Source: a virus. From it: 35,351 nucleotides of DNA. Numbering within the stretch: position 1 is the stretch's first letter; every line of letters starts with the position of its first letter. Below, one piece after another: positions 1 through 28,213 of the stretch. A program made the translations under genes and the position numbers. The stretch spans positions 1 to 35,351 of IMG/VR virus record IMGVR_UViG_3300031787_000433; one strand, 5' to 3'. The notes under the pieces were generated by a model that searched no databases, was not told the origin of the DNA, and was given only the letters and a program-made list of their open reading frames with translations.

Positions 1-127
1 GATGTCAAGCTGCGTTCCCTTGAGGATCTGCATGATTCCACGCGCCGAACTTGTGGGGTTTTTAGCGTCTGTATCAAATCGTGATTCGTGCCACGCTAGA
101 GCAACGAGGATCCGTTTCCACATCGCG
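1..127. repeat. Terminal direct repeat, left copy (circular contig overlap)
   Basis: Bases 1-127 are identical to 35225-35351. The length of 127 matches a common largest k-mer setting of de Bruijn assemblers, so this is most likely assembly overlap of a circular molecule and not a biological repeat. The transglycosylase gene reads through the joint without a frame break. Confidence 0.95.
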
Positions 128-210
128 GTATCGACTGATTTGAAGCGGGGCTGCATTTCGTTGACCGCTGCATTTGCCAATTCCGCCACCGTCCTTGCAT
201 CAATTCGCAT
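1..210 (-). CDS. Lytic transglycosylase, N-terminal part (continues at window end)
   Basis: This is the first 70 codons of a 151-residue SLT-type lytic transglycosylase. The start ATG at 210-208 overlaps the TAA of the upstream gene (TAATG). Reading runs off base 1 and resumes in frame at 35224, because the molecule is circular. The catalytic glutamate lies in the HESRFD motif (about E42), followed by ARGIMQI, both typical of SLT domains; the enzyme cleaves the peptidoglycan glycan strand. There is no signal peptide. Its position next to capsid candidates suggests a virion-borne enzyme that opens the cell wall during entry, which is inference. Confidence 0.9.
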   Translation of the reverse strand, partial: MRIDARTVAELANAAVNEMQPRFKSVDTAMWKRILVALAWHESRFDTDAKNPTSSARGIMQILKGTQLDI

Positions 211-965
211 TATTTTTCTCCCTGAGCAACGGCAAATTCGGCAATGCACTTGACCGGATAGCGAACGTACTTGCCGGTCGTTGGTATGTATTGAACTACC
301 TGTGCAAATACTTGTGGTGCTTGTACGATCTGACCGCCGTCGCTGTTGGAGATTACTGCGTACATATCATTGAACTCCCACGGGCAAGGAATACCTACCG
401 ACATATCGGATACGTTGAAGCTCAAAAGGTTGCCAAATTCGTCGCGGCTGCCTACCGACGGCACAGACAAATCTCGAAGAAGGTTTACGCCGCCAATGAC
501 AAAAGCCGGTCGAAACCAGTTGTGCGACCAGTCACTAATAAGCCCATCCCGAAACCGGGACACAACAAAGGACTGATTTGTGCAAAGGCTTGTGTCAATG
601 GCTGCATTTGTTGGGCCATCCTGATCCGGCGAGCCTGTAAGACGGTGATCATACGCTCGAAAATGGATTTTTGTTACTACGATCTTATTCGCAGTACGCA
701 AATATCCGGTATCGGTCATTGGTCGCAAGCGCGTTGAATATGGGCTTGCTGTAACGGCGGTTGTGCCGGGGCTTGTTGGCATTTGCGTCAATTCGTCGTG
801 CTCGATATTGCCGCCGCCGTTTGTCAGCCAATAGCCATCATTGGAGTTAGGAACCCAATTCTCAGCAAAATCCGGATTTGTGTCCGTCGTAGAAAACCAC
901 ATCGCCGTCCGAATGTCATATATCGGCGTTTGCAGCAATCGTTCGATTCGATTGTGGTCAAGCAT
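210..965 (-). CDS. Candidate capsid protein A (beta-rich, 251 aa)
   Basis: I cannot assign this by homology. The 251-residue protein has no signal peptide or membrane segment and is rich in alternating hydrophobic stretches that suggest a beta-sandwich. It ends YPVKCIAEFAVAQ, closely matching the end of the next protein upstream (YPIRCELQFIGAK), so the two look paralogous. An AAGG element lies about 9 nt before the ATG at 965. It is the third of three consecutive beta-rich genes in the late unit. Inference: a jelly-roll capsid or vertex protein of a tailless virus. Alternative: a spike or minor structural protein. Confidence 0.55.
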   Translation of the reverse strand: MLDHNRIERLLQTPIYDIRTAMWFSTTDTNPDFAENWVPNSNDGYWLTNGGGNIEHDELTQMPTSPGTTAVTASPYSTRLRPMTDTGYLRTANKIVVTKIHFRAYDHRLTGSPDQDGPTNAAIDTSLCTNQSFVVSRFRDGLISDWSHNWFRPAFVIGGVNLLRDLSVPSVGSRDEFGNLLSFNVSDMSVGIPCPWEFNDMYAVISNSDGGQIVQAPQVFAQVVQYIPTTGKYVRYPVKCIAEFAVAQGEK

Positions 966-980
966 TTTTTTGAGCCTTAA

Positions 981-1400
981 TTATCGCTTCGCGCCAATGA
1001 ATTGCAATTCGCAGCGGATCGGGTAGGTCGCTCCAAAGAGTGCCGTAGCAGAGTCAACCGTAAATACAACCTGATAATTTGTGTTCGCTGCGAGGCTGAA
1101 CTTCGGCACGTTGCTGTTAGAATCGTACCACATTGACAGAAACGCAAAAACGTCGCACGGCGTAGAGGCTAGTACAGCCGATGTATCGTTTGCGAGGATC
1201 TGCAACATGATACGATCGCGGGTTTGCTGAGTGGGCAAAATTGCCCCGGCGGTATTGAAAAAAGCACCGCGCACGCTCACAACGTCAATGTTGAAACCGG
1301 GTGTCTTAAACACCTGATCTGCCGGCTGCGCGGCGGCGGTAATGTTGTTTTTCAGCGTCCAGATGTAAAGACCTGATGCTGGTATGAGTTGCGGTTCCAT
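981..1400 (-). CDS. Candidate capsid protein B (single jelly-roll size, 139 aa)
   Basis: This compact 139-residue protein has about eight predicted beta stretches (for example FNIDVVSVRGAFF, RDRIMLQIL, NYQVVFTV) and the C-terminal strand YPIRCELQF shared with the 251-residue neighbour. The size and pattern suit a single jelly-roll. The gene follows a 149-bp non-coding gap with a strong hairpin (1443-1477), the largest gap in this part of the unit. No family was recognised. Inference: minor or major capsid protein with a vertical single beta-barrel. A structure prediction would settle this. Confidence 0.55.
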   Translation of the reverse strand: MEPQLIPASGLYIWTLKNNITAAAQPADQVFKTPGFNIDVVSVRGAFFNTAGAILPTQQTRDRIMLQILANDTSAVLASTPCDVFAFLSMWYDSNSNVPKFSLAANTNYQVVFTVDSATALFGATYPIRCELQFIGAKR

Positions 1401-1442
1401 GATGACTTCTTGGGGTTACGGGTGATGGTGGTATCCGCCGAC

Positions 1443-1477
1443 CTCGCACCGGGCCGACTTGGATGACCCGGTGCGAG
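1443..1477 (-). other. Strong intergenic hairpin between capsid candidates
   Basis: A perfect 11-bp inverted repeat (1443-1453 with 1467-1477, arm CTCGCACCGGG) closes a 13-nt loop in the 149-bp gap between the 204-residue and 139-residue capsid candidates. No T tract follows on the minus strand, so it is not a classical intrinsic terminator. It could protect the upstream mRNA 3' end or partly attenuate transcription, setting capsid protein ratios. A smaller 5-bp stem lies at 1498-1515. Confidence 0.6.
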
Positions 1478-1549
1478 TTGCGTGTTGGCGGTAAGAGTGC
1501 TACGTTTTTCAGTAGCAGTACGACAACGCTTGTGCGTACATCCAACCGC

Positions 1550-2164
1550 TTAGGCAGTTGGACGGCTCTGAGCACCCCAGTACCGCAGCGTCACGTTAAA
1601 TCCACGGTTGGATGTCGTGAAGCCGGCGTTTGGAAGGTGCGGGTTCGTTGCTCCCGAAGCAGCAAGCGAATAGCCACTGTTTGGCAGGAACGTAATAACG
1701 ATGTCGCCGCCCTTTGGAACCTCAATCGGCTCTGGGAGCGTGAAAATCGGAGCGAACTTCTGCACTGCCGTCAATGTACCGCTGACGTTAATCAGTTGGT
1801 ACGGAACGAGATCCTCAAGCGCAAAGCGATCTTCAGCCTTGCCCAGAATCGAGAACTGGATGTAGCTGAAGCGGTTGAAACCTTCGATTTGCGATGCTGC
1901 CGGCTCACTCTCATTTGCTGCGAAAGCAAGGTTGTGATTGAGCTGGATAGCCCTGATATACACGGCACGCTGCTGAGCGAGTACCGAAAGGACGCTTGTG
2001 CGGTACGTCGTGCTCTTCGATGCTGTGTTATCGAAAAATGTGTACGACGAGTCAAGCGTAGCACCGGGATTGATCAAAACACTGTCTTGACCAATGGCCC
2101 ATGTATTTTGAACTGACGCGCCGGCTGGCGGTAGTCCAAAGCCGTCTGGAACGATTTGCGACAT
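1550..2164 (-). CDS. Candidate major capsid protein (jelly-roll-like, 204 aa)
   Basis: The 204-residue protein has no membrane segment and is beta-rich, ending in FNVTLRYWGAQ, a final strand like those of the two downstream genes. A good Shine-Dalgarno (AAAGGAA, 6 nt from the ATG) and a strong hairpin behind the gene suit a highly expressed product. Its size is in the range of the single-jelly-roll capsid proteins of Thermus phage P23-77 and halovirus SH1 (established for those viruses), but I see no direct sequence match. Inference: major capsid protein. Alternative: other beta-sandwich virion protein. Confidence 0.5.
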   Translation of the reverse strand: MSQIVPDGFGLPPAGASVQNTWAIGQDSVLINPGATLDSSYTFFDNTASKSTTYRTSVLSVLAQQRAVYIRAIQLNHNLAFAANESEPAASQIEGFNRFSYIQFSILGKAEDRFALEDLVPYQLINVSGTLTAVQKFAPIFTLPEPIEVPKGGDIVITFLPNSGYSLAASGATNPHLPNAGFTTSNRGFNVTLRYWGAQSRPTA

Positions 2165-2227
2165 TGCAAATTCCTTTGAATTGATTAGAAATGATTATTT
2201 GACTGAGAGAGCGAGTGTCTGAAAGAC

Positions 2228-2776
2228 TTAGAACGGGCTGGTAGAGAACATCGGAGCGTTTCCGGCTGCGCTAGGCGAACCGTAACCGTCGCTGTAACCT
2301 TCGAGACCCTTGCTTGCAGCGTAATCCGGTGCAAAGCGATCCATCATGCCATCGTAGCTCGGTGCATACGTGCCATTTGGAAGCTGCGTCATCCGTGCGC
2401 CGGCTTGCATTGCTGCGGCAAGTCCATTTGCAGGCGTTTCTCCACCCGTTGAATCCGTTGTACCGGATTCGTCCATGCGCCACAATGGTTTATCCAGTGC
2501 CTTTTCAATCGGTGCGCGACCGGCTGTATAGGCAAGTTGGACGGCTCCCAAAGCCCACGCAGCGCGGCGCAGACCGGGGATATTAAACAGAGCACCGATG
2601 CCCCACGTTGAAGCAAATGCCACACCCAGACCCGCGTACGAGTTCAGATTCAGCAATGTAGAAGGCAGAATCCACGTTACCGCAGCGAGCAAAGCCGATA
2701 CGTCATCGGTAAGCTCCTGCTTTGACATGGAATGCTTCAGATTTTGATTGATCTGAAGCGAAAATTTACGTGCCAT
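2228..2776 (-). CDS. Probable membrane-associated virion protein (182 aa)
   Basis: I do not recognise this family. The N-terminal 30 residues are polar. Residues about 28-85 are strongly hydrophobic and Gly/Ala-rich, enough for two membrane segments (around LLAAVTWILPSTLL and GLGVAFASTWGIGALF). The C-terminal half is hydrophilic, with many Gly, Ser and Tyr. GGAG lies 10-12 nt before the ATG. It sits directly upstream of the capsid candidates in transcription order. Inference: a protein embedded in an internal virion membrane. Confidence 0.55.
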   Translation of the reverse strand: MARKFSLQINQNLKHSMSKQELTDDVSALLAAVTWILPSTLLNLNSYAGLGVAFASTWGIGALFNIPGLRRAAWALGAVQLAYTAGRAPIEKALDKPLWRMDESGTTDSTGGETPANGLAAAMQAGARMTQLPNGTYAPSYDGMMDRFAPDYAASKGLEGYSDGYGSPSAAGNAPMFSTSPF

Positions 2777-2807
2777 AAAGCACTACTCCGTAAAAATGGT
2801 TGAAAAA

Positions 2808-4022
2808 TTACATTCTTCGATTGGTTCCGGCCCGGTAAACGTACGCTGCTGTACCACCGAGTACCAGCCACATCCACCACGGGAATCCGGCTTGTTGTGC
2901 TTTGGCGCGTGTAGGATCCAGCTTGTTCGCTTCCGTGTCAAATTCTCCACCGCTATTTTGTGCGGTTGTAGGGGCGTTAGGCATTGTTGGTTGCTGAGGC
3001 GTTACGTTTGTGCCGATAACGCGGCTTGACTCACTCAGCCCCTTTAGGGTTTTGGCTTTACGCTTAGCACGTAGCCCCGCGCCGAGCGCACGCAACACTT
3101 CTTCGCAATCGACATCTGGATCCGCGTCAGTTTCGCACACCAGTACCTTTACCTTGACCTTGAAGGGCTTTGATCCCGGTGCGGGTTCCTCTGTAACGTA
3201 GGCGGATGCTTTTACGAGTCGTTCTTCACAGTCATCGCACCAATTCGGATCCTGCGGTACTTGCGACAAGCCCATCATGCCGGGTACTCCACCTTCCTCG
3301 ATCGAGCCTTTAAGAGCTTTCAGAAGTTCATCGCAGTCCATCTGCGGATCTTCTTCCATGTCGCCTTCGCAGATAATCTTCTTAAATGCTACGGGAATCT
3401 CGATCGCTCCCGGTGACGGGCGTGCGCTAACGTGCAGCGTCTTATCGACCCATTTCTCAACGCAATTTTCGGGCGGCGGACAATCTTCGCCGGTAGTATC
3501 ATCTTTTTTCTTCGTACCACCACCGCCTGTATTGTCTTTAGGTTTTGGTAAGAGCTTGATGACGTAAAGAAATTCGACCGGATTTGCTTTGATGTATGGC
3601 GTGTTCCGCCATTGTGGGATTTCCGCCGGCCCAACAATAAGCCCGTATTGATCCGTAATCGCGCTTGGCTTACTCGTAACAATCCACAGAGACGGTGTGC
3701 CGGCTCCGATCTGATTTCTCACCACCACTGGCAATGATTTATCGCTTTGCGATGGTGTATCACCCCAATATCCAAGCGTATCGGTGTAATTACCCGGCAT
3801 ACCCATCCAGCCTTTTGTTGGATTGATAAAGGCTTGCACGACCGCGATAGCTTGCTGACGCAATTGTGGATCAGTTGGCTTGTGCAGTTGGTATTTGGTC
3901 GGGTTATAGGCTTCGTCATACAGACTTCCCATGCCATAACGCATACCACAATTACCAGCAAGGCCGCGTCCTTGTTGTTTTGCAGGCTGAAAGCTGTGAA
4001 ATCCCGTCGAATGCTTGAACAT
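2808..4022 (-). CDS. Tail-anchored Cys-rich protein with internal duplication (404 aa)
   Basis: The start at 4022 is chosen because it lies 11 nt after the preceding stop; longer readings overlap that gene. Residues 1-160 are a mixed N-terminal domain. A Gly/Lys linker (about 163-178) leads into two copies of a roughly 50-residue module (187-238 and 265-314). Each has matching cysteines (C187, C218, C230 and C265, C296, C306) around the pattern CE-D-DP-DC-E-L-AL. A Pro/Thr/Asn-rich stretch follows, then a hydrophobic segment at 380-396 with a basic tail. No family was recognised. Inference: a membrane-anchored virion protein whose paired domains may bind metal or form disulfides. Confidence 0.6.
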   Translation of the reverse strand: MFKHSTGFHSFQPAKQQGRGLAGNCGMRYGMGSLYDEAYNPTKYQLHKPTDPQLRQQAIAVVQAFINPTKGWMGMPGNYTDTLGYWGDTPSQSDKSLPVVVRNQIGAGTPSLWIVTSKPSAITDQYGLIVGPAEIPQWRNTPYIKANPVEFLYVIKLLPKPKDNTGGGGTKKKDDTTGEDCPPPENCVEKWVDKTLHVSARPSPGAIEIPVAFKKIICEGDMEEDPQMDCDELLKALKGSIEEGGVPGMMGLSQVPQDPNWCDDCEERLVKASAYVTEEPAPGSKPFKVKVKVLVCETDADPDVDCEEVLRALGAGLRAKRKAKTLKGLSESSRVIGTNVTPQQPTMPNAPTTAQNSGGEFDTEANKLDPTRAKAQQAGFPWWMWLVLGGTAAYVYRAGTNRRM

Positions 4023-4033
4023 TGTTGATTTTC

Positions 4034-4261
4034 TCACTTTGTTGCAAAGTAAATGATCGCTCCTGCGGCAATAACAGCAACGACATACCACATAGTGTTG
4101 TTGTCGGGTTGTTGTTCGTAGGTTTCCTGCTCATTTGCAGTAGTCGTGTAACCGCCTTTCGGTGCGCCTACAAATCCGGGCGCACGTACGACGGGCATAT
4201 TTCCAAGCGGCGTACTGCTGCGGTACGCATAGGCGGTTGACGGCATGATATTGGACTGCAT
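4034..4261 (-). CDS. Small tail-anchored protein (75 aa)
   Basis: The start at 4261 is preferred because it lies just after the upstream stop (4266); the open frame runs back to 4360, but that would overlap the previous gene by 95 bp. The N-terminus is Pro/Gly/Thr-rich. The final 20 residues (from MWYVVAVIAAGAIIYF) form one hydrophobic segment ending in Lys. No family was recognised. It is one of a series of single-anchor proteins in this unit. Start confidence is modest because no clear ribosome site is visible. Confidence 0.55.
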   Translation of the reverse strand: MQSNIMPSTAYAYRSSTPLGNMPVVRAPGFVGAPKGGYTTTANEQETYEQQPDNNTMWYVVAVIAAGAIIYFATK

Positions 4262-4265
4262 AGGT

Positions 4266-4835
4266 TTATGGAAATTCTTTCGGATAACGTCGGCCCACAT
4301 AGCCGGGGCGTACACCCGGATCGAACGATTGACGAATGCGCTCTTTTGCTTTGGGGGCAAGAACGATTGGCAATACTCTATCTTCTTCAGGTGTTGTTAC
4401 CGGATCATTGTTGCTTGGCGTGCTGTAACGGCTACTGTAATAACCGCCGTGCTCATAGCTCGAAGAGGACGGATTGTTTTCAGTAGTCGTTGGTGCATAC
4501 GTGTACGGATTCGCCTCGCTTGGGGAATAGGACGTGTCTGCGCTGTGCATATCGGTATAGTCACTTGAGCGACGGTTTCCGCTCTGAACATTGATTACAA
4601 TGTTAGGCATCATCATCGTAGCTGATTGACCGCTACCGGCTCCGGGAGTGTTTGCTGAGTACCGAGGCTGACCGCCGCCATTGCATCCACATCCGCAATC
4701 GGAAGTTGATCGACACTTGCGCGAAGGACAGCACGCGCCGGTAATTCGCAGATCCCGCGCAGGAATGTTGCGATTTGGCTTATCGTAGGCGTTTGAGTAA
4801 CGCCTGCCGATAGGTGGTGTAATAGGACTCATCAT
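4266..4835 (-). CDS. Low-complexity Ser/Tyr/Pro-rich protein with Cys cluster (189 aa)
   Basis: The protein is hydrophilic and probably disordered, rich in Ser, Thr, Tyr, Asn and Pro. A cysteine cluster lies near residues 35-51 (CCPSRKC, DCGCGC). A short beta-prone stretch (MMMPNIVINVQSG) lies near the middle, and the C-terminus is basic. AAGGA precedes the ATG by 6-7 nt, and the gene begins one base after the upstream stop. Function is unknown. The Cys cluster could bind metal. Alternative: a linker or spike-base protein of the virion. Confidence 0.6.
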   Translation of the reverse strand: MMSPITPPIGRRYSNAYDKPNRNIPARDLRITGACCPSRKCRSTSDCGCGCNGGGQPRYSANTPGAGSGQSATMMMPNIVINVQSGNRRSSDYTDMHSADTSYSPSEANPYTYAPTTTENNPSSSSYEHGGYYSSRYSTPSNNDPVTTPEEDRVLPIVLAPKAKERIRQSFDPGVRPGYVGRRYPKEFP

Positions 4836-4836
4836 A

Positions 4837-6249
4837 TCATTTCCTTAGAGCTAGATATGCAATGCCGGCGGCTCCGGCTACGCCAAGCAACGCCACCATC
4901 GGAGAAATGCCGCCGTCACGCTGCGTATTCATGCCGGTTTTTGCACGGATCTCGTCAGCAAAGCAATCACGCTTGTCTGCCGGAACGATGTCGGGTATGC
5001 TCATTTTATTGTAGCCGCGACGGTAAAGATCCCAAGCTCGCTCTGTCAATCCCTTTAGAGCAATTCGATCGAGCGAACACGGACTTACCGGTACTCCATG
5101 AGCGATTTGATAGATTCCACGCCATTCCGCAGCCGTCTGAAGATCATTGGTTTCGCTGGCTGTTAGTCCGGCAACCTCAATAGCGCGAGGAATAGCAGCC
5201 GTTGGAGTTGTCATCGCCGTCAGCATCATATTCTGTAGGGCTGGCGTTTTGGTAATCGTGCCGTTATTGATGATTTCTTGCTTGGCTGTTCCGGATTTGA
5301 TCGAACCGCGTACCTGATTGATTGTATCCATGATGTAAAGAGACTGAGCAGCGTTCTCCACCTCTTTACTGACATCGGCTGCATAGTCGTTCATAATCCG
5401 GTTCACGCCATTCACGTCGATTCCGAATTGCTGTGCAGCCGATTTGTAATCCCCGGCTTGCACCTTTTCGTAGAACGTTGTTGCGTCTTTGACGCTAGAG
5501 CGAAACTCCGCTGGCACTACAAGATTGGCAGCCGTCGCCAACTCAGAAATTGTTACCGGCTTATTTTGTGCAAGATTTTGAATTGCCGGCGTAAAGCTGA
5601 GAAACGTCGATGCGTCAATGCTCAAAAACGAACCTACATACGGCGCACACGCTTTCATTGCGAGATCAATCGCTATTGCGGCATACTCCATGAAAAGTTC
5701 GCCTACATACGACCACGTTGTAGGTCGTCCTACGATTTTAATGACAATCGGCTGATTATTCGGGCCTTCATTTTCGAGCTGAATAAGCCGGTTCATAACA
5801 TTTCCGCGTATCTCTGGGAAGATTGTACGCTCAATGTACCCGCCGCCTTCACCTCGCTTGACCTCGATGATTGTAGGGCTTGCGCCCAAAGCACCTGATT
5901 CAGTCAGGTTCTTGGACATTACATTTTCATTATCGCCGCTGAAACGTTCAGTAAGAAGGACAATAGCCCGATTGTGCTTATTACGGAAAACACCAAAGCC
6001 CGACCGATTTACTGTTTCGGGAAGCATTAGACCGAATGCCGATCCGGGAACGCGAGTATTTTGTGCGCCGAGGGCATCATACAGCACGTCATCGTTATTC
6101 AGCCAAGTGAAATGCGGGACTTCGTGACCAAGTTTTCGCGGATCCGTTTGCGACGGGGATACGGACGAGGCCAGACCGCTGTAACGGGTGCTGATTTGCT
6201 TTCTGTCGTAGGACGGTGAAAAGCGATCTTCAAGAGTGACAAGTTCCAT
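4837..6249 (-). CDS. Large tail-anchored virion protein (470 aa)
   Basis: The start at 6249 overlaps the preceding TAA (TAATG), which favours it over an upstream ATG at 6270. The 470 residues show no ATPase or other known motif. The first 180 are mixed alpha/beta, about 180-450 are largely helical, and 450-468 form one hydrophobic segment (MVALLGVAGAAGIAYLAL) followed by RK. It is the largest protein of the membrane-anchored group. Inference: a major membrane-associated virion component, perhaps a vertex or penetration protein. There is no terminase- or portal-like signature. Confidence 0.6.
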   Translation of the reverse strand: MELVTLEDRFSPSYDRKQISTRYSGLASSVSPSQTDPRKLGHEVPHFTWLNNDDVLYDALGAQNTRVPGSAFGLMLPETVNRSGFGVFRNKHNRAIVLLTERFSGDNENVMSKNLTESGALGASPTIIEVKRGEGGGYIERTIFPEIRGNVMNRLIQLENEGPNNQPIVIKIVGRPTTWSYVGELFMEYAAIAIDLAMKACAPYVGSFLSIDASTFLSFTPAIQNLAQNKPVTISELATAANLVVPAEFRSSVKDATTFYEKVQAGDYKSAAQQFGIDVNGVNRIMNDYAADVSKEVENAAQSLYIMDTINQVRGSIKSGTAKQEIINNGTITKTPALQNMMLTAMTTPTAAIPRAIEVAGLTASETNDLQTAAEWRGIYQIAHGVPVSPCSLDRIALKGLTERAWDLYRRGYNKMSIPDIVPADKRDCFADEIRAKTGMNTQRDGGISPMVALLGVAGAAGIAYLALRK

Positions 6250-6464
6250 TACCAGCGTCCTATCGGGCAAGTTTGGTCAATCAAAAGCGTTTTTTGCGGC
6301 AGAAAGCAGTTACATACAGAGCATTTTTCACGCGGAGCCGTCGCCCGGTTCGGGCAGGACATACATTGCATATACCGCATCTCTGCGGTTTCCATGCTTG
6401 CCGTAGGCTTGAACGTAGCGCGAAGCAGATTTACTGCGCCCTGTAAGTATTGCCTGACTGTCAT
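6249..6464 (-). CDS. Small zinc-binding protein (71 aa)
   Basis: The start at 6464 follows the upstream stop by 5 nt; longer readings run into the neighbouring gene. Residues about 33-71 carry CMSC, CSVCNC and a terminal CPIGRW, a layout seen in small phage zinc-ribbon proteins ending in CP-x-x-W. The N-terminal half is basic and amphipathic (VRQYLQGAVNLLRATF). It may bind zinc and contact nucleic acid or protein. No precise function can be assigned. Confidence 0.65.
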   Translation of the reverse strand: MTVRQYLQGAVNLLRATFKPTASMETAEMRYMQCMSCPNRATAPREKCSVCNCFLPQKTLLIDQTCPIGRW

Positions 6465-6469
6465 TTTTT

Positions 6470-6727
6470 TCACTTCAGCAGCATATAGGCGACAAGGATG
6501 GCAACGCCCCCGCCAACGATCCACGGGATATAACTCTGTACCTCTTGAGCTACGCCCTGACCGCAAATCTTCTTTTGAACGTCAATCGGGAGACCTTTAA
6601 TGATCTCCATGACATTTTCGTTCGGCAGACGCTTAATGATGTCGGTAGCTTGCTCAACTCCGATCCTTGTCCAGTCGATTTCGATTCCGAGTCCGGAAAC
6701 ACCGGCAGTGCAACCGCATGAAGCCAT
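6470..6727 (-). CDS. Small tail-anchored protein (85 aa)
   Basis: This 85-residue protein begins with a short Cys/Gly-rich stretch (CGCTAGVSGLG), continues with an amphipathic helical part, and ends in one hydrophobic segment (YIPWIVGGGVAILVAYMLL) plus Lys. AAAGG lies about 9 nt before the ATG. No homology was recognised. The layout is the same as in the 75-, 126- and 470-residue proteins of this unit, suggesting insertion into a common membrane. Confidence 0.65.
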   Translation of the reverse strand: MASCGCTAGVSGLGIEIDWTRIGVEQATDIIKRLPNENVMEIIKGLPIDVQKKICGQGVAQEVQSYIPWIVGGGVAILVAYMLLK

Positions 6728-6744
6728 GATTTGAACCTTTCAGC

Positions 6745-7299
6745 TTAAAAAACGTCAATAACTTTTTTGCGAATCACGGGAGATTTCTCCCATGCAAACC
6801 CATTTTTGCCGGCAACCGGATCCATCGGGAACCAGCGATACTCACCCTCAGCGTTAGGCATCAAAACCTCAACGTAAACGTGCGTGAAATCCTGTCCACG
6901 CCAAGCGATGACCTTGTACTTAACACGGAATCCCATTGCACCAAGAAGGGCGGCAAGCATCATCGACATATCATCGCAGTCGCCAACTAATACACCAAGC
7001 TGATGCTTAGGTGCGATCAAAAATTCTGTTGTTGACGGATTTTTGACATCGGCCCATTCGGTAACGTGCTGATGATCGAATTTGTAGTCGATATTATCCA
7101 CTACCCAATCGAACGCTGCCTTCACTTTGCAGAACTCTTTTTGCACACCCGACGTGCCTGAGCACTGAGCTGATAATCTTTTTGCCAACGTTTTAACGTC
7201 GGGAGTACGCGAATCGCGCCGCGCAAGCCTGATCATGTGATCGAGCGTTTTACCAATGGCTGAATCGCCCTTGCCTATGTCGCGCACAACCGTTTTCAT
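6745..7299 (-). CDS. Transglutaminase-like cysteine protease-fold protein (184 aa)
   Basis: The protein shows the three transglutaminase-like active-site blocks in order: GDCDDMS (C108), THVYVEV (H140) and MDPVA (D160). Members of this superfamily act as transglutaminases, proteases or amidases, so the Cys-His-Asp triad supports an active enzyme without naming its substrate. There is no signal peptide. Its ATG directly follows the TAA of the tail-anchored neighbour. Inference: it may process or crosslink virion proteins during assembly, or attack the cell envelope at entry. Complete blocks argue against a degenerate copy. Confidence 0.85.
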   Translation of the reverse strand: MKTVVRDIGKGDSAIGKTLDHMIRLARRDSRTPDVKTLAKRLSAQCSGTSGVQKEFCKVKAAFDWVVDNIDYKFDHQHVTEWADVKNPSTTEFLIAPKHQLGVLVGDCDDMSMMLAALLGAMGFRVKYKVIAWRGQDFTHVYVEVLMPNAEGEYRWFPMDPVAGKNGFAWEKSPVIRKKVIDVF

Positions 7300-8070
7300 T
7301 TAGCGACGGCTCGTCAGTAATGGCATAGCGACGTAGATCGCAACACCTACGACAACAAGTGTCAAAACATTGCTCAGCAAATCGTTGATACCCGCGAAAG
7401 CCCCATCCTTATCTTTGGCATCTTTGATTTCTTTGACGCGGTTGTCGTACCAATTATTCATGCGCGGATTGCCGGGATCGCGGCTGTCAAACGTCAAGGG
7501 CCAAAGAAAGTCCGGCCTGATCAATTTCTCATCTTTGGCGTACAAATCTCCAGCATGGTAGAACATCGTCTGCACAAACGCTTCGGCTGAAGTATATTTC
7601 TTCAAACTCTGCACACGTTTGACAATGTATTTTACCGCAGCCTTCCAGTCAACCGGGGCGGCATTTACTACCCTGTCGTTTTCCTTGTACGGGAAATACT
7701 CTGGACACTCGCCTTTGCGTACACCTTCAACATAGACGTTGAACACTTTTGCTATGTCGCCATACGAATATGACTCACTTCCGGGAATCCACGGAAAGGC
7801 TTTTGATGCGTTGTGGTTCGATTCAGAATAGATATTGCAATACGTCTCTTCCAACGTAGCCGGATCCGGCTTTGTGCCGATGATCATGCAGCCATATCGA
7901 CCGGTAGGCTCGCTTAGCGTAGCATTGCCGGTTGCCGCATCGTAACGCGGTGCGAATACACTACCGTAGCCGTAGCGCAAGGGGCTTGACTTTATCGTGC
8001 TGTATCGGTTTGTCATGTAGCCATTCGGATAGATATGTGCGTTCGTGACGTGCTTCCTCAATCGCGACAT
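7300..8070 (-). CDS. Tail-anchored virion protein (about 256 aa; start uncertain)
   Basis: The open frame extends to a GTG at 8121. ATG codons at 8070 and 8019 are alternatives, and none has a clear Shine-Dalgarno; 8070 is a compromise. The body is hydrophilic and Tyr-rich, with no recognised motif. One hydrophobic segment (LLSNVLTLVVVGVAIYVAMPLL) ends the protein, followed by TSRR. It is the first sizeable gene of the late unit and directly precedes the transglutaminase-like gene (TAAATG). Inference: a membrane-anchored virion protein. Confidence 0.6.
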   Translation of the reverse strand: MSRLRKHVTNAHIYPNGYMTNRYSTIKSSPLRYGYGSVFAPRYDAATGNATLSEPTGRYGCMIIGTKPDPATLEETYCNIYSESNHNASKAFPWIPGSESYSYGDIAKVFNVYVEGVRKGECPEYFPYKENDRVVNAAPVDWKAAVKYIVKRVQSLKKYTSAEAFVQTMFYHAGDLYAKDEKLIRPDFLWPLTFDSRDPGNPRMNNWYDNRVKEIKDAKDKDGAFAGINDLLSNVLTLVVVGVAIYVAMPLLTSRR

Positions 8071-8152
8071 AATCAATGGGCTGTTTGCGTCCGTTCCGCC
8101 TTTGGCGAATTGGTGTCTCACCCGGTGTAATATGATCGTCGTATTGAGGCAT
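7961..8152 (-). CDS. Possible small basic protein (63 aa)
   Basis: This short frame has the best-placed ribosome site near the late promoter (AGGTAGGG just before the ATG at 8152). It encodes a polar, basic peptide with no known motif. It overlaps the 5' part of the next gene in another frame by over 100 bp, so one of the two 5' ends is probably wrong. It may be a genuine leader gene or only a shadow. Confidence 0.3.
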   Translation of the reverse strand: MPQYDDHITPGETPIRQRRNGRKQPIDYVAIEEARHERTYLSEWLHDKPIQHDKVKPLALRLR

Positions 8153-14008: not shown

Positions 14009-14493
14009 TGCAGCAAAATCACAACCAAACCGCAGATCCAAACGCAAACGCCCAAGCCTTTTTAGACATGATGGACGACCTTGCAAGCTGGATCATTCTT
14101 GCACCGCACACGCAACCGAGTAGGATCATGCACCTACCCGAAGGCGTACACGATTTGACCGAAAATCAAATGAAGCGCATGACAGACGAGTACAACATGG
14201 TCGAAGCCATTGTGCAAATTCTGGACGAAACGAAAACAGAGTTGCAGGGGCTAGGGCTATCACCCTTGAGGTACGAGCAAGAATTGATACTTCGATTTAA
14301 TACGCTTATGCACCCCCAGAGCGAAAAAATTGCCCAAGCTGTGTATGATCATTGGCGTTATCAGATCACCGACGGCAATGCACGGTTGAACATGGCAAAA
14401 GCAAAGACGATTTTGGAGATGTTCCAGAAAATTGCATTTATCCGCACGTCCTACGCTCATTTGTTCTACGCACCAAAATCCGAATCGCGCTGA
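14008..14493 (+). CDS. Unknown protein of the replication unit (161 aa)
   Basis: The ATG at 14008 overlaps the upstream TAA (TAATG) and has GGAGGG 5 nt before it, which decides the start. The 161 residues are soluble and almost wholly helical (AQAFLDMMDDLASWIIL, YNMVEAIVQILDETKTEL). No family was recognised. Its stop overlaps the helicase start (TGATG), so the two are coupled. It may load the helicase or bind the origin, which is inference from position only. Confidence 0.65.
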   Translation: MQQNHNQTADPNANAQAFLDMMDDLASWIILAPHTQPSRIMHLPEGVHDLTENQMKRMTDEYNMVEAIVQILDETKTELQGLGLSPLRYEQELILRFNTLMHPQSEKIAQAVYDHWRYQITDGNARLNMAKAKTILEMFQKIAFIRTSYAHLFYAPKSESR

Positions 14494-16232
14494 TGACCGA
14501 GCAACAGGGGAACGATCAAAACGCCGACATAGCTGAACTGTCGAAACGGCTTTTTGAAGGGCTTAAAGCCCTACAAGCAGAGTCACCTATTGACGCAGCG
14601 TATCAAATCGCTGACGATCATACGCGATACGCCGGCAGACTAATAGCCGAAGGCAGCACGACTGAAGCTGAGGCCCGTAGGCGGTTGTTGCCGATAATCG
14701 AGGGTTACGCGATCGCTCGCGCTAGAAATGATGACGAGGTTACGGACGAGTTAATAGCGCGTTTCACTGCATCATTTGATGCCGCTCTTGAGCAAGGCAT
14801 TACACGTACACAGACGTTCGACCGGATCCGCGAAGCCATAGATTATGCAAGCCTAGCGAGCAAATACGCGCAGCGGATTTGGAAGGTAACGGAGCACGGT
14901 AACAAGCTGATTCATACCGCTACGGCTGAATGCGTACTCGAAGAGGTCAAATTGGTATGTGTCGATCTGGGTATGCGAAAGCAATTTTATCAGTACGATG
15001 ATGACGGCGGCAAGTGGGAAAAGGTTACGACCATGACCGTCAAAAAAATTGTCGTCGGTATAATTGGCGATGCAGCTACCGACAGCACAGCAAGCGCGGT
15101 CGTTGGCCTTGTGGCTATAATGTGTGAGGTACGACAAGATGCGTTCAATGCCGGATCGCACCTGATAAATCTGCGTAACACAGCGTTCGATCTTGACCTA
15201 TACAAGCCCGTACCACATAAGCCACAGCATTACTTCACGTACCATTTGACGTATGAATACGATGCTGAGGCAACTTGTTCCTACACAGACAGTATGTTAT
15301 CGCAATATGCGATGCACGATCCGGCATGGATAAATTGTTTTTGGGAAATGGCGGGTTTTTGCCTACAAGCGGATTACTTCGTCAACAAAATGTTCTGGTT
15401 GGTCGGTGACGGCAGTAATGGCAAATCGACGGTGCAGAAACTATTGCACGAATTGATAGGACACTCGCTAACGAAAACCGGGTTTCGCGTTTCCGATCTA
15501 GGCAAGGACTTCTACCTTTATTCGGTTATCGGCAAAAGGATGGCCTTATGCGGCGACGCAGCCGTTCGCATGGATAATATGGACTTGCTCAAGCAGTTTA
15601 CCGGGGGCGATGCGCTCTCTACGAACGTCAAATTTGGTGATTATGTGCAGTTCGAGAATACCGCTAAGCTCATTCTGTGTATGAACCGCGCACCACTTAT
15701 TTCATCGCATGAAGCCCTGAAGCCAATTACACGACGCATAATCTGGCTTCCATTTGAATATCGAATTTTACAGCCGGATCCGAGCGTAGATAAGAAAATG
15801 CTGAGTGAATTACCGGGGGCTTTCAATCGCGCCGTGGAAGGACTTGTGCGGTTACGACGACAGGGTACTTTTACTAAGGTTGACCGGGGTGAAAAAGCTC
15901 TTTCAATTTGGGCTGGTACGGCAAACCTACTCGAAGTATTCATCAGCGAAAACGTGCGGGTACGCGAAAATGAAAAAATCCGGCTAGGCCAACTATGGGA
16001 CATATATCGCAAATGGATGGATCAGTGGGGCGGCAGACTGTGGGAATCAGATCCGTACAATATCCGAAGCGCACACCAACTAAGCCGGGAGATCATTGCA
16101 CGCTACGGATGCAAAAAAGAGTACGAGCAATGCCGTTATTACAGCGCGGACGGTCATTGGATCAGCGGTAAACAGGTTTTTCTTTACGGCATTGGACTGA
16201 GCGAGGAAGAATCGCGGGAAGTCAACTTCTAA
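14493..16232 (+). CDS. SF3 replication helicase, D5/phage P4 type (579 aa)
   Basis: The start at 14493 (TGATG coupling) gives 579 residues; an open frame further upstream overlaps the previous gene. A D5-type N-terminal region (about 125-290) leads to the SF3 ATPase: Walker A GDGSNGKS (305-312), Walker B-like block RMALCGDA (D355), sensor I block LILCMNRAP (N398) and a following arginine pair (RRIIWLPF). Such helicases unwind DNA at viral and plasmid origins. The first 120 residues are helical and show no archaeo-eukaryotic primase motifs, so priming is probably done by the host or another protein. It is the only clear replication enzyme in the genome. Confidence 0.92.
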   Translation: MTEQQGNDQNADIAELSKRLFEGLKALQAESPIDAAYQIADDHTRYAGRLIAEGSTTEAEARRRLLPIIEGYAIARARNDDEVTDELIARFTASFDAALEQGITRTQTFDRIREAIDYASLASKYAQRIWKVTEHGNKLIHTATAECVLEEVKLVCVDLGMRKQFYQYDDDGGKWEKVTTMTVKKIVVGIIGDAATDSTASAVVGLVAIMCEVRQDAFNAGSHLINLRNTAFDLDLYKPVPHKPQHYFTYHLTYEYDAEATCSYTDSMLSQYAMHDPAWINCFWEMAGFCLQADYFVNKMFWLVGDGSNGKSTVQKLLHELIGHSLTKTGFRVSDLGKDFYLYSVIGKRMALCGDAAVRMDNMDLLKQFTGGDALSTNVKFGDYVQFENTAKLILCMNRAPLISSHEALKPITRRIIWLPFEYRILQPDPSVDKKMLSELPGAFNRAVEGLVRLRRQGTFTKVDRGEKALSIWAGTANLLEVFISENVRVRENEKIRLGQLWDIYRKWMDQWGGRLWESDPYNIRSAHQLSREIIARYGCKKEYEQCRYYSADGHWISGKQVFLYGIGLSEEESREVNF

Positions 16233-17447: not shown

Positions 17448-20198
17448 TTACCACGATTTTTTCCACCCCGGATCACGCAGCCCCTTACTGCCAAAGATCG
17501 TATGCGACTTCAGCGGCCCGTCACGGTGTTTCCGCAATTCCGCCATGCCATTTCCCTTGTCGTTTGACGTAGCAATCTCAGTGTCAACAGCGTGCGCCAA
17601 TGCTTGAATGCCGAGGTAAGCGTTCTTGCCTTTCGTGGCCTGTGCAATGAAGATCCAACTTATCTCCGGGAACGTTTGCATTAGCTCAACAATTTTTTGC
17701 TGCTCAGTGTTCAGCATATTGATCGAGTCGATAATGACATAACGATATTCGCCGGTATTAACGAGTGCCGTCAGGCGGTCGATCGTTCCAGCGTCATCAA
17801 AATTGATATTTGCCGAATACGCTTTCATCAGATCCATGCGTGCTTTTAGGCGACCTGACGCGACCTTTTCTTCCGTCATGTAGTAGAGAACACGCCCCGT
17901 ATCGGTTTCAGCAAGCTCATTGGCGAGACGCAGGACGAACGATGACTTGCCGGATCCGGGGCCGCCCCAAATCAGCATATTGAATTTTGCAAGCAAATTG
18001 GTCAGAAATTCACGCATCTCACCCGTCAGCGGCAACGATTCAGGGGGATCCATCGACACTATGTCGTTTGTGGTAAGCGGCGCAACGTTCATCGGATCGG
18101 CTGCGGTGGTGTCCGGAACTTTGGAATCCATATCAGCCGGTTCAGTGTTCACTTGCGTCATGGTATCGTTGTCAGATAGACCCTTGTTTTCGACAGTCTG
18201 CGGATCTGCACCAATCTGAGCAACATCCTCAAAATCATAACTTGTATCATCGCCCACGGTGTTGCCGCCGTGCTTTGCGAGAATGTTCTTAGCCCACGTA
18301 TAGGCCGCGTCACCGCCCCACAAGGCCCATGCAATCCGTCCGGCACTAGGATAGCCGTTCTCGCCCAAGCGGAAACCTTCAGCATCCTTGTCCACTTGGT
18401 GACGATCAAAGTAGGCTTTGATTCGCTTAATCGTCTCTAGGCTAACTTTCCGTCCATTAGAAAGATCCCTCGCCCTAGCTACGCCAACCTCAGTACCGCC
18501 ACGATTAAACTCGCGCCGCCACTGTAAGCCTCGCGTTGCTTCACGTTGTGCCAATTCTGGCACATGAAAGGTTATACCTTCCATTGGCTCCCCGGTGCTC
18601 ACCGCAGGATCATAGCCCCACTCATGGATGCTATTGCCGTCTGTGAACAAATCCTTTGCCTTTACCACTTTGGATATAATCGTGTATCCACCCGGTATGG
18701 CAAGTTCGCCATGATCTTCGGCATATCGCCTTGTGAGCGTAACCCAATCGCGTACACCAATCGAAGGCTGAATGGTTACACCGTCAACCGATCCCAAGTT
18801 TTCTACCTGATACTCGACAAATTCACTGTACTCGGATGCGCTGTGAACGGGAACGTCCGCCCACGGCGGAATAGCCGAATTATCACGCATATAGCGACGA
18901 TCTTGCTTTAGATCTGTCAGTGAATCACGCAAGCCCTTTTGAACGGCTCGGTAAATCTTCACCTTAGCGTCGGGCTTGTTGTGAATGTTCCGGATGATCT
19001 GCAATGCTTCGGCATCAGCGTCAGTACCATCGCCGTAAATGCCCAGTGCCCTTGAAAACGGCAACGAGTAAATATCGGGGAAGGCTCGCGCAGCATCGTG
19101 GGCAGGAGCGAAATCGTCATCACGATATGGAGCTTTATGGCGTTGCCCTGATCCGGAATCGACTACGTTTTCATTCTCTGAAAGTCCGCTCACACTGCTT
19201 TTTCTACCTATCGCCTGATTCGCCAACAATAGGACATCGTTAATGTCGGCAGTTCCAAATTTACCCTCTGCGGTGCGGTCGATAACTGCGCGAGAATAGA
19301 GGTAAAGCGCACGATCTAGACCGCGTGATTTGTAGCGATCTAAGGCGTTCAAATGCGATCTATGCCACGCGCTATGTGTAACGTCCGACCATATTTGCGC
19401 CCCGCGCTCATCGCAAGAAAAGTAATTGTTTGCAGAACCGTTGCTCAGGTGCATGGCTAAGGTCGGGTTGTCAGTAGCCAAAATGTCAATCTGCAACTTC
19501 GTTGAATCTTTTACATACGCGATGTTTTCTTCAATCTCATCTTCATCAATCACCTGATTGCGCGTGATCCTGCTGAAACTATACCGATAAGGGACAGTGA
19601 TGGCAACAAGTTCGGTGATCGAGGTAAATCGGCAAAATGCCTGAAAATCTGCATAGGAAAACGCCGCACAATTAGGATGGTTGTGCGTAACGTAAAATTC
19701 TCGTGTCGTGTCACTCAAAAGATCGACCGGGATGCTAACCGCGCCCTTGTCGATTGAAGCGTAACAGACGTGAACGGGCCGCTCATTGTCACGTTGTAAA
19801 CGACCTTCAAAGACCCCAATGTATTCCATTTGCGCCGATGCAATGGCCTGATTAAATTCAGTCCTATTAAGCATTGTAAGAGCCTCAAGAAGCTCGCTTG
19901 ACGGCGGGTTAGGAGGTACACGATCATCACACGCCTCAGCATCAAATTCAACGACCGCCGATTGTGCTGATTGTTGCCAAAGTGTAAGTGATTTCCGAAT
20001 CAGTACAGCCCTATCAAGATCCGTGTCTGCGTCAATAGGAAAATCACCCGACTCAATCTCTCGCTCAAGATCGGCTAACAAACGGGCAATACGCGGTGCG
20101 TCCGCCGCCGCCGCAGAAGGTACTGTCGCAATGCGTCGCGGCCCCGGCGGACATACGATGTCTCGCCAGTCTGTCACGGAATTTGTTGTCAGTGTCAT
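17448..20198 (-). CDS. Multidomain protein: JAB-like, ART-like, phage module and RecA-like ATPase (916 aa)
   Basis: Four modules can be seen. Residues 125-205 hold a JAB/MPN-like metal motif (H172, H174, S181, D184), with one residue fewer than the classical H-x-H-x7-S-x2-D spacing. Residues 413-530 resemble the ADP-ribosyltransferase-like domains of phage polyvalent proteins (IYRAVQKG with R417; WVTLTRRYAEDHG; HEWGYDP with E526). Residues 550-645 carry a phage module (GGTEVGVARARDLSNG, PSAGRIAWALWGGDA). Residues 730-900 form a RecA/RadA-like ATPase with Walker A GGPGSGKS (745-752) and Walker B YVIIDS (D824). It may be injected or act on host targets; the ATPase is one candidate for DNA packaging. 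Its start overlaps the upstream gene (ATGA). Confidence 0.75.
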   Translation of the reverse strand: MTLTTNSVTDWRDIVCPPGPRRIATVPSAAAADAPRIARLLADLEREIESGDFPIDADTDLDRAVLIRKSLTLWQQSAQSAVVEFDAEACDDRVPPNPPSSELLEALTMLNRTEFNQAIASAQMEYIGVFEGRLQRDNERPVHVCYASIDKGAVSIPVDLLSDTTREFYVTHNHPNCAAFSYADFQAFCRFTSITELVAITVPYRYSFSRITRNQVIDEDEIEENIAYVKDSTKLQIDILATDNPTLAMHLSNGSANNYFSCDERGAQIWSDVTHSAWHRSHLNALDRYKSRGLDRALYLYSRAVIDRTAEGKFGTADINDVLLLANQAIGRKSSVSGLSENENVVDSGSGQRHKAPYRDDDFAPAHDAARAFPDIYSLPFSRALGIYGDGTDADAEALQIIRNIHNKPDAKVKIYRAVQKGLRDSLTDLKQDRRYMRDNSAIPPWADVPVHSASEYSEFVEYQVENLGSVDGVTIQPSIGVRDWVTLTRRYAEDHGELAIPGGYTIISKVVKAKDLFTDGNSIHEWGYDPAVSTGEPMEGITFHVPELAQREATRGLQWRREFNRGGTEVGVARARDLSNGRKVSLETIKRIKAYFDRHQVDKDAEGFRLGENGYPSAGRIAWALWGGDAAYTWAKNILAKHGGNTVGDDTSYDFEDVAQIGADPQTVENKGLSDNDTMTQVNTEPADMDSKVPDTTAADPMNVAPLTTNDIVSMDPPESLPLTGEMREFLTNLLAKFNMLIWGGPGSGKSSFVLRLANELAETDTGRVLYYMTEEKVASGRLKARMDLMKAYSANINFDDAGTIDRLTALVNTGEYRYVIIDSINMLNTEQQKIVELMQTFPEISWIFIAQATKGKNAYLGIQALAHAVDTEIATSNDKGNGMAELRKHRDGPLKSHTIFGSKGLRDPGWKKSW

Positions 20199-20497: not shown

Positions 20498-21873
20498 GAT
20501 CCCCCTCCATATACAAGGCGTAATGCTGCAAGTTTAGTTCGTACCGCATCAGTCGCAGCGTTCTGACTGAAGCGACCGGAAATTACGACGCGGGTTTCGT
20601 GTTCCAAGTTATTTATGTTGAAGCGATCAAGCATTCTGTCAATCAAAACCTCGGACGTTTCCGGCACACCTAGATCATCAGGGGAGCAATGCCACCACGA
20701 CCATGTGCCGTAAGAATGTGCATAAAACATATCGTAACGAAAGAATGCAGGATCACCACCGTAGATCAATGCAGTATTAAAATCAAGAAGTTCATCGTAT
20801 GATTTCACGGTAAATTTGTGCAAAAACAGTGTTGGTCGCGTATGATTCACACGGCTTGTTTCCGCATAGCGGTCTTTGGGATCATACGGGAAATCATGTG
20901 CCATACAAGGCCATCTTCCATTGCTGTAACCAACAAATAGCGCGGTAATACTGACCTTGAAACCGTTAGTGATGAGCAACTTAGCTAGTGCAATCGCCGC
21001 AAATGAATTGTATCGGTAATCGTTAGCACGCACGTCACTAGCTGCCGTTACGTTTACATAGATATTGATAAACGGCGTAATGCGGATTTTCTGTTCTTTT
21101 GCAGCAAAAACCTTTTTCGTTTGCGTCCGGAAAAGCCCCGTGCCATCTGTACGCTTTTCAATACCATCTTTAACGAGTTCAACATCCGGCGCATCAGCCA
21201 AATAATGCCGATCATCCCTTGTAATTACAGAGGAAGTAGGCAAGCATTGATCGTCGTCCACGTCAACTTTATAGCACGGAAAGGCATACAGTGTAGGCGC
21301 GATTCGTGAAAACATAAAAACCCCGCCGCGACTGTTGTAGGTCAATCGTGGCCTCGGTACATCTGTTTCCGGATTGATCCGTAGCTCGTCCTCGAAGCGA
21401 GAAAAAAAATTATTCGCATCAGCCAATCGAGGATAAACCCTTTTCACGCCTACAACGTAATTGAAATTTTCATCTTCTCTTACATCGTAGCCATACCAAT
21501 CTTCGTCACGTCTGCGTACTCTCTCCGGAGCAAAATATCTGAAAACCTGACGACGCTCACGTTGCTCAAAATCACCAAAATTGATGCTATCGTATGCCTG
21601 AGTCAGCCGCCGGTTTACATTGCCGATCGCCAGAACATTATCAAGATCCACCATGATAAAATCAGGGGTACGTGCCAATTGTTTTGTAATGGCATCGAGA
21701 TCAGCGTTGTTGCGGTAGGAAGCATCCAGAGCGTACATTTGCTGAAGTCGATACGGTGTCAGCAAATATGATGTTAGTCCCGGCATACGTTGGTATGCAG
21801 CATCGACAAATGGCAGTGGATTGTATGCCTTTATCGTCGCGAACTGACCCGGTGTAAGCGAAAGTATTGACAT
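20494..21873 (-). CDS. Possible VWA-like partner of the AAA ATPase (459 aa)
   Basis: The 459-residue protein lies directly behind a MoxR-type ATPase gene, and the two are coupled (shared base 21873). Residues about 262-320 (PFINIYVNVTAASDVRAND, then FAAIALAKLLITNGFKVSITALFV) fit the first strand, helix and second strand of a von Willebrand A-like fold, as in CobT-type partners of CobS ATPases. The metal site is degenerate: N-x-T in place of D-x-S-x-S. MoxR/VWA pairs work as metal- or protein-remodelling chaperones. The assignment rests on layout and a weak motif. Confidence 0.5.
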   Translation of the reverse strand: MSILSLTPGQFATIKAYNPLPFVDAAYQRMPGLTSYLLTPYRLQQMYALDASYRNNADLDAITKQLARTPDFIMVDLDNVLAIGNVNRRLTQAYDSINFGDFEQRERRQVFRYFAPERVRRRDEDWYGYDVREDENFNYVVGVKRVYPRLADANNFFSRFEDELRINPETDVPRPRLTYNSRGGVFMFSRIAPTLYAFPCYKVDVDDDQCLPTSSVITRDDRHYLADAPDVELVKDGIEKRTDGTGLFRTQTKKVFAAKEQKIRITPFINIYVNVTAASDVRANDYRYNSFAAIALAKLLITNGFKVSITALFVGYSNGRWPCMAHDFPYDPKDRYAETSRVNHTRPTLFLHKFTVKSYDELLDFNTALIYGGDPAFFRYDMFYAHSYGTWSWWHCSPDDLGVPETSEVLIDRMLDRFNINNLEHETRVVISGRFSQNAATDAVRTKLAALRLVYGGGS

Positions 21874-27913: not shown

Positions 27914-28213
27914 CTACTTCCAGACTCCACCGACGTTAATGAACCAGTTTGCTGTTTTCCATACACCCGACACGTTGATCCAAGTAGTCACCTGCTTCCA
28001 CACGCCCAAAACGTTCAGCCAGAGCGTTGTTGCAGGCGAACGGCTTTGCGAAGAACCGTCGCCAACTTGCATCCGGACATATCCAAACTGCGGTGTTGAC
28101 AAACGTCCACCGTAGGTCACGGTATCAGTACGAAATCCCTGCACGGGCGTAGGAGTACCCAGATCGCGCTGGATAATCATTGCGCCGCCGCCGATGGTGA
28201 ACTGGAATGACAT
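27914..28213 (-). CDS. Small virion protein with W-x-NV-x-GVWK repeats (99 aa)
   Basis: The C-terminal half contains three units of the pattern W-[IL]-N-V-x-G-V-W-K (or WFINVGGVWK) spaced about 13 residues apart. Such repeats occur in phage fibre and attachment proteins. The N-terminal half is beta-prone (TPQFGYVRMQVGDG). Its gene shares base 28213 with the 711-residue fibre-type gene. Inference: a cap or linker of the receptor-binding complex. Confidence 0.65.
   Translation of the reverse strand: MSFQFTIGGGAMIIQRDLGTPTPVQGFRTDTVTYGGRLSTPQFGYVRMQVGDGSSQSRSPATTLWLNVLGVWKQVTTWINVSGVWKTANWFINVGGVWK

What the first reader, a model, noticed from the sequence alone, without database searches (positions are those of the whole stretch)
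1..8152. Probable tailless, membrane-containing dsDNA phage with a 35-kb circular genome
The late unit has fibres, hydrolases and many membrane-anchored proteins, but no protein reads as large terminase, portal, HK97 capsid, prohead protease, tape measure or tail tube, though all larger frames were read. Three small beta-rich proteins sit where capsid genes would be. The known comparison is Salisaeta icosahedral phage 1 (circular, internal membrane). If right, this is a distinct lineage of non-tailed phage.
Basis: partly seen in the sequence, partly recalled or inferred. Interest (0 to 1): 0.93.

Follow-up and report, generated by a model that had tools for sequence, protein, structure and literature searches.

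The report
SSIP-1-related, terminase-less circular phage
This is a complete circular genome of an uncultured virus with no recognisable parts of an ordinary tailed phage; two of its late genes match virion genes of Salisaeta phage SSIP-1, a tailless membrane-containing phage without described relatives in the papers I could search, so it gives that orphan its first relatives.

Summary
Observation mostly confirmed; interpretation partly supported. The contig closes on itself (127-base terminal overlap, about 35,224 bp; two close relatives close too). The three small ORFs exist and are 76-84% conserved. No terminase, portal or HK97 profile matches any protein of 300 aa or more; a terminase profile rings in none of nine related records but rings in a tailed control. 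Decisive new evidence: two proteins match annotated virion proteins of Salisaeta icosahedral phage 1: 6745-7299 (gp34, transglutaminase fold, E 1.3e-14; SSIP-1 is its only match among 50,697 phage records) and the C-terminus of 17448-20198 (gp40 ATPase, E 1.6e-12). The 139-aa protein is modelled as a beta-sandwich (pLDDT 69); small capsid proteins of HCIV-1, HHIV-2, SH1 and P23-77 are among its weak matches, but so are cement proteins. The 204-aa model failed. Capsid identity and an internal membrane are inferred, not shown. Corrections: the ATPase is RadA-like; membrane segments are not diagnostic; the 916-aa protein is a polyvalent protein with a swappable N-terminus. gp34-like genes mark six further terminase-less contigs, several circular, and a Verrucomicrobiales MAG. 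Best reading: a family-level lineage related to SSIP-1, probably tailless and membrane-containing (0.72).

The parts
1..127 (.). Terminal overlap identical to 35225-35351: genome closes to a circle of about 35,224 bp
210..965 (-). 251-aa protein, candidate capsid or vertex protein, 78% conserved in both relatives
   Evidence: no match in Pfam/PHROGs/PDB sequences
981..1400 (-). 139-aa protein, candidate small capsid protein (beta-sandwich, jelly-roll-like) or cement protein
   Evidence: AF2 pLDDT 68.9, pTM 0.64; weak structural matches to small MCPs of HCIV-1/HHIV-2/SH1/P23-77 and to phage cement proteins
1550..2164 (-). 204-aa protein, candidate major capsid protein (among the best conserved late proteins, 82-84%)
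   Evidence: model failed
2228..2776 (-). 182-aa membrane protein directly upstream of the capsid candidates, 81% conserved
2808..4091 (-). 427-aa ORF (start uncertain), hydrophobic C-terminus, late gene
4837..6249 (-). 470-aa protein with C-terminal transmembrane anchor
6470..6727 (-). 85-aa protein with C-terminal transmembrane anchor
6745..7299 (-). Homologue of SSIP-1 virion protein gp34: transglutaminase/papain-like fold, Cys108-His140-Asp160 conserved
   Evidence: blastp E 1.3e-14, hhalign 98%, Pfam Transglut_core 1.6e-10; SSIP-1 is the only match in 50,697 phage records; invariant residues
7300..8121 (-). 273-aa protein with C-terminal transmembrane anchor
14490..16232 (+). D5/P4-type primase-helicase (replication initiation)
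   Evidence: NCBIfam TIGR01613 3.7e-43; DUF5906 and D5_N
17448..20198 (-). 916-aa polyvalent protein: N-terminal JAB-like motif (HNHPNCAAFSYAD), phrog_2579 module (ART-like by eye), about 95-aa mobile module, C-terminal RadA-like ATPase homologous to SSIP-1 gp40
21873..23381 (-). MoxR-type AAA ATPase; no homologue found in relative G002
   Evidence: AAA_5 2e-17, phrog_249 9.9e-26
27037..27627 (-). CHAP peptidoglycan hydrolase with C-terminal membrane anchor
28213..30348 (-). 711-aa fibre/spike protein
   Evidence: phrog_1591 8.3e-6
31357..32706 (-). 449-aa glycine-rich fibre/spike protein
   Evidence: PF21722 1.8e-6; phrog_863 3.5e-11
32707..33294 (-). Second CHAP hydrolase with N-terminal hydrophobic segment
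33974..34963 (-). 329-aa protein with coiled-coil-like and Pro-rich stretches, 74-75% conserved
34979..35351 (-). Lytic transglycosylase (SLT); the ORF continues across the junction and starts at position 210
   Evidence: PF01464 3.9e-18; relatives' copies are 151 aa; junction sequence

Best explanation
A complete circular dsDNA genome of a phage related to Salisaeta icosahedral phage 1, most likely making a tailless icosahedral particle with an internal membrane. Proposed working (inferred unless marked): a D5-type primase-helicase starts replication (domain shown). The long minus-strand late unit makes capsid proteins (204 aa, 139 aa, perhaps 251 aa, placed next to a membrane protein), proteins with a C-terminal membrane anchor that would sit in the inner membrane (segments shown, role inferred), vertex spikes (711 and 449 aa) for attachment, and wall hydrolases (SLT and two CHAP; domains shown). 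The gp34-like protein keeps a Cys-His-Asp set (shown) and is probably a virion-associated processing or wall-acting enzyme. The 916-aa polyvalent protein is probably packaged and delivered with the DNA: its C-terminal RadA-like ATPase corresponds to SSIP-1 gp40, annotated as a virion structural protein, and its N-terminus is swapped between relatives (JAB-like motif here, GNAT in G002; shown), as expected of an arsenal aimed at host defence. Whether that ATPase packages DNA is open.
For: gp34 homology: E 1.3e-14, hhalign probability 98, unique to SSIP-1 among 50,697 phage records. gp40 homology: E 1.6e-12, hhalign 97.6; SSIP-1 is also its best and fullest phage match. Both are annotated structural proteins in SSIP-1. 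In a gp34 tree the window group joins SSIP-1 with moderate support (83/86). Terminase absent here and in all related records, with working controls. Circular like SSIP-1. Beta-sandwich model of the 139-aa protein, with HCIV-1 capsid chain 6h9c_D third by E-value and HHIV-2, SH1 and P23-77 VP16 also listed. Published: SSIP-1 has two capsid protein types and an internal membrane (PMC6356626, PMC4958249).
Against: Only two genes are shared with SSIP-1 by sequence; the capsid candidates match neither SSIP-1 gp45/gp46 nor any solved structure by sequence. The fold evidence covers one protein with Z up to 8.4, in a range where unrelated beta-sandwiches rank equally. RadA-like ATPases of this kind also occur in Bacteroides phages. 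Membrane-segment counts do not separate it from tailed controls. No host or virion is known.
Confidence: 0.72

Rival explanations
1. A highly divergent tailed phage whose terminase, portal and capsid have drifted beyond profile detection; gp34- and gp40-like genes were exchanged with SSIP-1-like phages.
For: Fibre, SLT and CHAP genes and a capsid-polyprotein module are shared with tailed phages; the gp40-like ATPase occurs in Bacteroides phages.
Against: Large terminase is among the most recognisable phage proteins and no large protein here is one; the only P-loop proteins identified are RadA-, MoxR- and D5-like. None of nine related records has a terminase. No tube or tape-measure protein is recognised.
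Confidence: 0.12
2. A tailless phage with the usual double jelly-roll capsid protein (PRD1/PM2/FLiP type), hidden in one of the 400-500-aa late proteins, the small proteins being minor ones.
For: Proteins of suitable size exist (470, 427, 459 aa); the FLiP and Odin groups also lack a recognisable FtsK/HerA ATPase (PMC8328091).
Against: The 470-aa protein has a C-terminal membrane anchor, unlike a shell protein, and is less conserved (54-63%) than the 204- and 139-aa proteins (76-84%). Homology points to SSIP-1, reported to have two capsid protein types.
Confidence: 0.1
3. A plasmid or satellite-like mobile element carrying some virion-like genes.
For: Circular; P4-type primase; no integrase found.
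Against: Full set of spikes, lysis and wall hydrolases, and about 20 kb of late genes largely conserved in order in two relatives; matches annotated SSIP-1 virion proteins.
Confidence: 0.06

Closest known systems
[quoted passage not shown]
   Same: Circular dsDNA; homologues of gp34 and gp40, both annotated structural; late transglycosylase; no terminase
   Different: Smaller (35.2 against 43.8 kb); only two shared genes; ATPase fused into a polyvalent protein; has MoxR and D5 genes with no counterpart named in SSIP-1, no integrase found; capsid proteins not recognisably related by sequence
Thermus phage P23-77 and Halopanivirales (SH1, HHIV-2, HCIV-1)
   Same: Small beta-sandwich protein weakly resembling their small capsid protein; circular genome as in P23-77; late hydrolases
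   Different: No sequence match; RadA-like rather than FtsK/HerA-like ATPase; genome twice the size of P23-77
Polyvalent proteins of phages and conjugative elements (PMC5512222)
   Same: Disparate enzymatic domains in one late, probably virion-borne protein; N-terminus differs between relatives
   Different: Fused to a gp40-type RadA-like ATPase in a putatively tailless phage
Roseobacter phage CRP-406 and Synechococcus phage S-CBS1 (tailed)
   Same: Share the roughly 95-aa module at residues 548-642 (46-62% identity), at the N-terminus of their major capsid protein
   Different: They have terminase, portal and tape measure; this genome has none

Membership tests
SSIP-1-like phages | gp34 structural protein homologue | tested here: met
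   E 1.3e-14; only SSIP-1 in 50,697 phage records
SSIP-1-like phages | gp40 ATPase homologue | tested here: met
   E 1.6e-12; best phage match
SSIP-1-like phages | Circular dsDNA genome without terminase | tested here: met
SSIP-1-like phages | Capsid proteins related to SSIP-1 gp45/gp46 | tested here: inconclusive
   No sequence signal; no confident model of the 204-aa protein. That gp45/gp46 are the SSIP-1 capsid proteins is my inference from their being paralogous structural proteins
SSIP-1-like phages | Tailless icosahedral virion with internal membrane | not testable with these tools
   Needs particles; membrane-segment counts not diagnostic
Halopanivirales / single-jelly-roll lineage | Two single-jelly-roll capsid proteins | tested here: inconclusive
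   One protein modelled as a beta-sandwich, Z up to 8.4
Halopanivirales / single-jelly-roll lineage | FtsK/HerA-type packaging ATPase | tested here: inconclusive
   RadA profile better (NCBIfam 4.6e-8, PDB RadA 3.6e-12); FtsK and DUF87 below cut-off, but the positive control P23-77 is below cut-off too
Tailed phages (Duplodnaviria) | Large terminase | tested here: not met
   controls ring
Tailed phages (Duplodnaviria) | HK97 capsid protein, portal | tested here: not met
   No Pfam/PHROGs/NCBIfam match in the proteins of 300 aa or more
[quoted passage not shown]
   No profile match; large late proteins not modelled
Polyvalent proteins | Several unrelated effector domains in one late protein | tested here: met
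   phrog_2579, phrog_2859 and ATPase domains in one chain; GNAT-type N-terminus in relative G002; the JAB and ART labels rest on motifs only

The most novel reading that the evidence does not exclude
The gp34-like gene marks a large, overlooked lineage of tailless phages without terminase (nine records here besides SSIP-1, circular ones at about 29, 32, 35, 35, 35, 35 and 70 kb, plus a related locus in a Verrucomicrobiales MAG), with SSIP-1 as its only cultured member; this window founds a separate family in it, with a polyvalent effector fused to the SSIP-1-type ATPase.
Probability: 0.45. Interest if true: 0.82.

Novelty: new variant of a known kind. Interest (0 to 1): 0.7.

Why it matters
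SSIP-1 has stood as an unclassified dsDNA phage since 2012, with a genome said to share hardly any similarity with GenBank (PMC6356626). These genomes would be its first relatives, giving gene conservation and synteny with which to find its capsid, its packaging ATPase and its wider lineage, and showing that terminase-based virus detection overlooks such phages. A domain-swapping polyvalent protein fused to a probable virion ATPase would suggest that tailless membrane phages also deliver proteins with their DNA.

Tried and rejected
AF2 of the 204-aa protein with three sequences: pLDDT 33, not used. Profile searches of the three capsid candidates against PDB sequences: nothing useful. hhalign of late proteins against 21 SSIP-1 proteins, and of the three capsid candidates against all 57: only gp34 and gp40; a full all-against-all run timed out. 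Shuffle tests of the capsid candidates against SSIP-1 and G003 proteins: one z of 4.0 among 84 pairs, not counted. Profile comparison of capsid candidates with sister lineages: probability about 10 or less for the window proteins. Capsid-protein scans of viral contigs and genomes: only the two close relatives or nothing. L049 matched the ATPase only; by eye its transposase-like neighbours suggest a Mu-like phage, set aside. Membrane-segment count as evidence: rejected after controls. Rfam and tRNA: nothing. Window 25001-35351 was not compared at DNA level with phages; 1-25000 gave no match.
Full report
WHAT WAS CHECKED. The window is a whole virus record whose first and last 127 bases are identical; it closes to about 35,224 bp. 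No tRNA or Rfam family was found. Apart from a + strand replication block (13784-16232, with a D5/P4 primase-helicase), the main genes run on the minus strand in one direction round the circle. The lytic transglycosylase ORF crosses the junction (34979 to 210).

NO TAILED-PHAGE HALLMARK. All proteins of 300 aa or more were run against PHROGs and/or Pfam and/or NCBIfam. Three kinds of P-loop ATPase appear: D5-type primase-helicase, MoxR-type AAA and a RadA-like domain. No terminase, portal, HK97 capsid or tape-measure protein is called. Two terminase profiles find nothing in this record, in the relatives G001 and G002, or in six gp34-bearing records, apart from an E 0.001 P-loop match inside the RadA-like domain of G001; phrog_2 rings in tailed phage S-CBS1.

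RELATIVES. Two IMG/VR records, G001 (31.9 kb) and G002 (29.5 kb), share most late genes in order; both close on themselves. The 204-, 139-, 251-, 182- and 184-aa proteins are among the best conserved (76-84%), as expected of shell and core proteins. G002 lacks homologues of the MoxR and 459-aa genes and has one fused 1239-aa ORF there, either natural or an assembly effect.

LINK TO SSIP-1. In 50,697 phage records the 184-aa protein matches SSIP-1 gp34 alone. Direct blastp: gp34 E 1.3e-14, gp40 against the C-terminus of the 916-aa protein E 1.6e-12; hhalign 98.0 and 97.6%. Both are annotated structural proteins of SSIP-1, reported as a membrane-containing phage with two capsid protein types (PMC6356626, PMC4958249). 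In a gp34 tree the window group joins SSIP-1 at 83/86, with a long SSIP-1 branch. No other SSIP-1 protein matched.

CAPSID. AF2 of the 139-aa protein (three sequences) gave pLDDT 68.9 and pTM 0.64, nine strands, though only one of five models was good. Foldseek PDB lists HCIV-1 6h9c_D third (E 4e-3), then HHIV-2, SH1 and P23-77 VP16, mixed with phage cement proteins and other beta-sandwiches; VIA-align Z is 8.4 at most, within the range of common arrangements. So a jelly-roll-like capsid or cement protein is plausible, not shown. The 204-aa model failed; 251 aa was not modelled for want of jobs.

THE 916-AA PROTEIN. Domains: N-terminal HNHPNCAAFSYAD (JAB-like by motif; no Pfam match); phrog_2579 region (ART-like by eye, unconfirmed); a roughly 95-aa module also found at the N-terminus of tailed-phage major capsid proteins; RadA-like ATPase (NCBIfam RadA 4.6e-8; PDB RadA 3.6e-12). 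In G002 the N-terminus instead carries a GNAT domain (PF13508 3.9e-5, just below its score cut-off). This is the layout of polyvalent proteins, predicted to be packaged and injected (PMC5512222). The published prediction of gp40 as a packaging ATPase (PMC4124505) is therefore uncertain: its relatives include RadA-like proteins of Bacteroides phages.

WIDER LINEAGE. A scan with a gp34-family alignment found further records: G003 (35.6 kb, circular), G006 (70.2 kb, circular), G008 and G009 (35.0 and 35.4 kb, circular), G005 (43.3 kb) and G007 (16.8 kb), none with terminase; also a locus in a Verrucomicrobiales MAG. By eye, those read in detail have the gp34-like gene, then proteins with C-terminal membrane anchors, then small beta-rich-looking proteins 4-8 kb downstream; some of these are related across records (E 2e-7 and 3e-6), but the window's own candidates do not join them at useful probability. 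G008 and G009 carry a 351/379-aa protein with VIVGQTQRAGKTT that looks HerA/FtsK-like by eye but has no Pfam match.

Membrane segments: 10/32 late proteins here, against 5/24 and 8/25 in two tailed phages, 7/26 in SSIP-1 and 15/26 in P23-77.

VERDICT. A terminase-less relative of SSIP-1, probably tailless and membrane-containing, family-level distinct. Shown: circularity, the two homologies, absence of hallmarks, conservation. Inferred: capsid identity, membrane, delivery of the polyvalent protein. Novelty was judged on the held literature only: searches for SSIP-1 found no described relatives and NCBI lists it as unclassified.

Noticed in passing
L059:9821-14636 (Verrucomicrobiales MAG JABTUJ010000008.1): A gp34-like gene followed by a 333-aa protein weakly similar to a capsid candidate of G003 and by several repeated beta-rich-looking ORFs: a possible provirus of the wider lineage.
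   Followed up: partly
L076 (G008) and L077 (G009): Two circular 35-kb genomes, no terminase, with a gp34-like gene, a 91% identical 256-aa late protein (capsid candidate) and a HerA/FtsK-looking ATPase; the 256-aa protein and the ATPase had no match among known phages.
   Followed up: partly
window 18273-18557, residues about 548-642 of the 916-aa protein: A roughly 95-aa module shared at 46-62% identity with the N-terminus of major capsid proteins of tailed Roseobacter and Synechococcus phages; possibly a virion-targeting module.
   Followed up: partly
L046:4378-8097 (G002): Fused 1239-aa ORF in which a GNAT domain replaces the JAB-like N-terminus and the MoxR and 459-aa genes are missing.
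   Followed up: partly
window 9139-12209: Run of about a dozen tiny overlapping minus-strand ORFs, some with a shared motif (LEA.NAEL...RAAIAKAKGE), function unknown.
   Followed up: no
window 30596-32706: Modules like 'DERVKITTNDTTPGFLGAKLVAGTNVSLTTQNPGGNE' repeated within and between two spike proteins.
   Followed up: no
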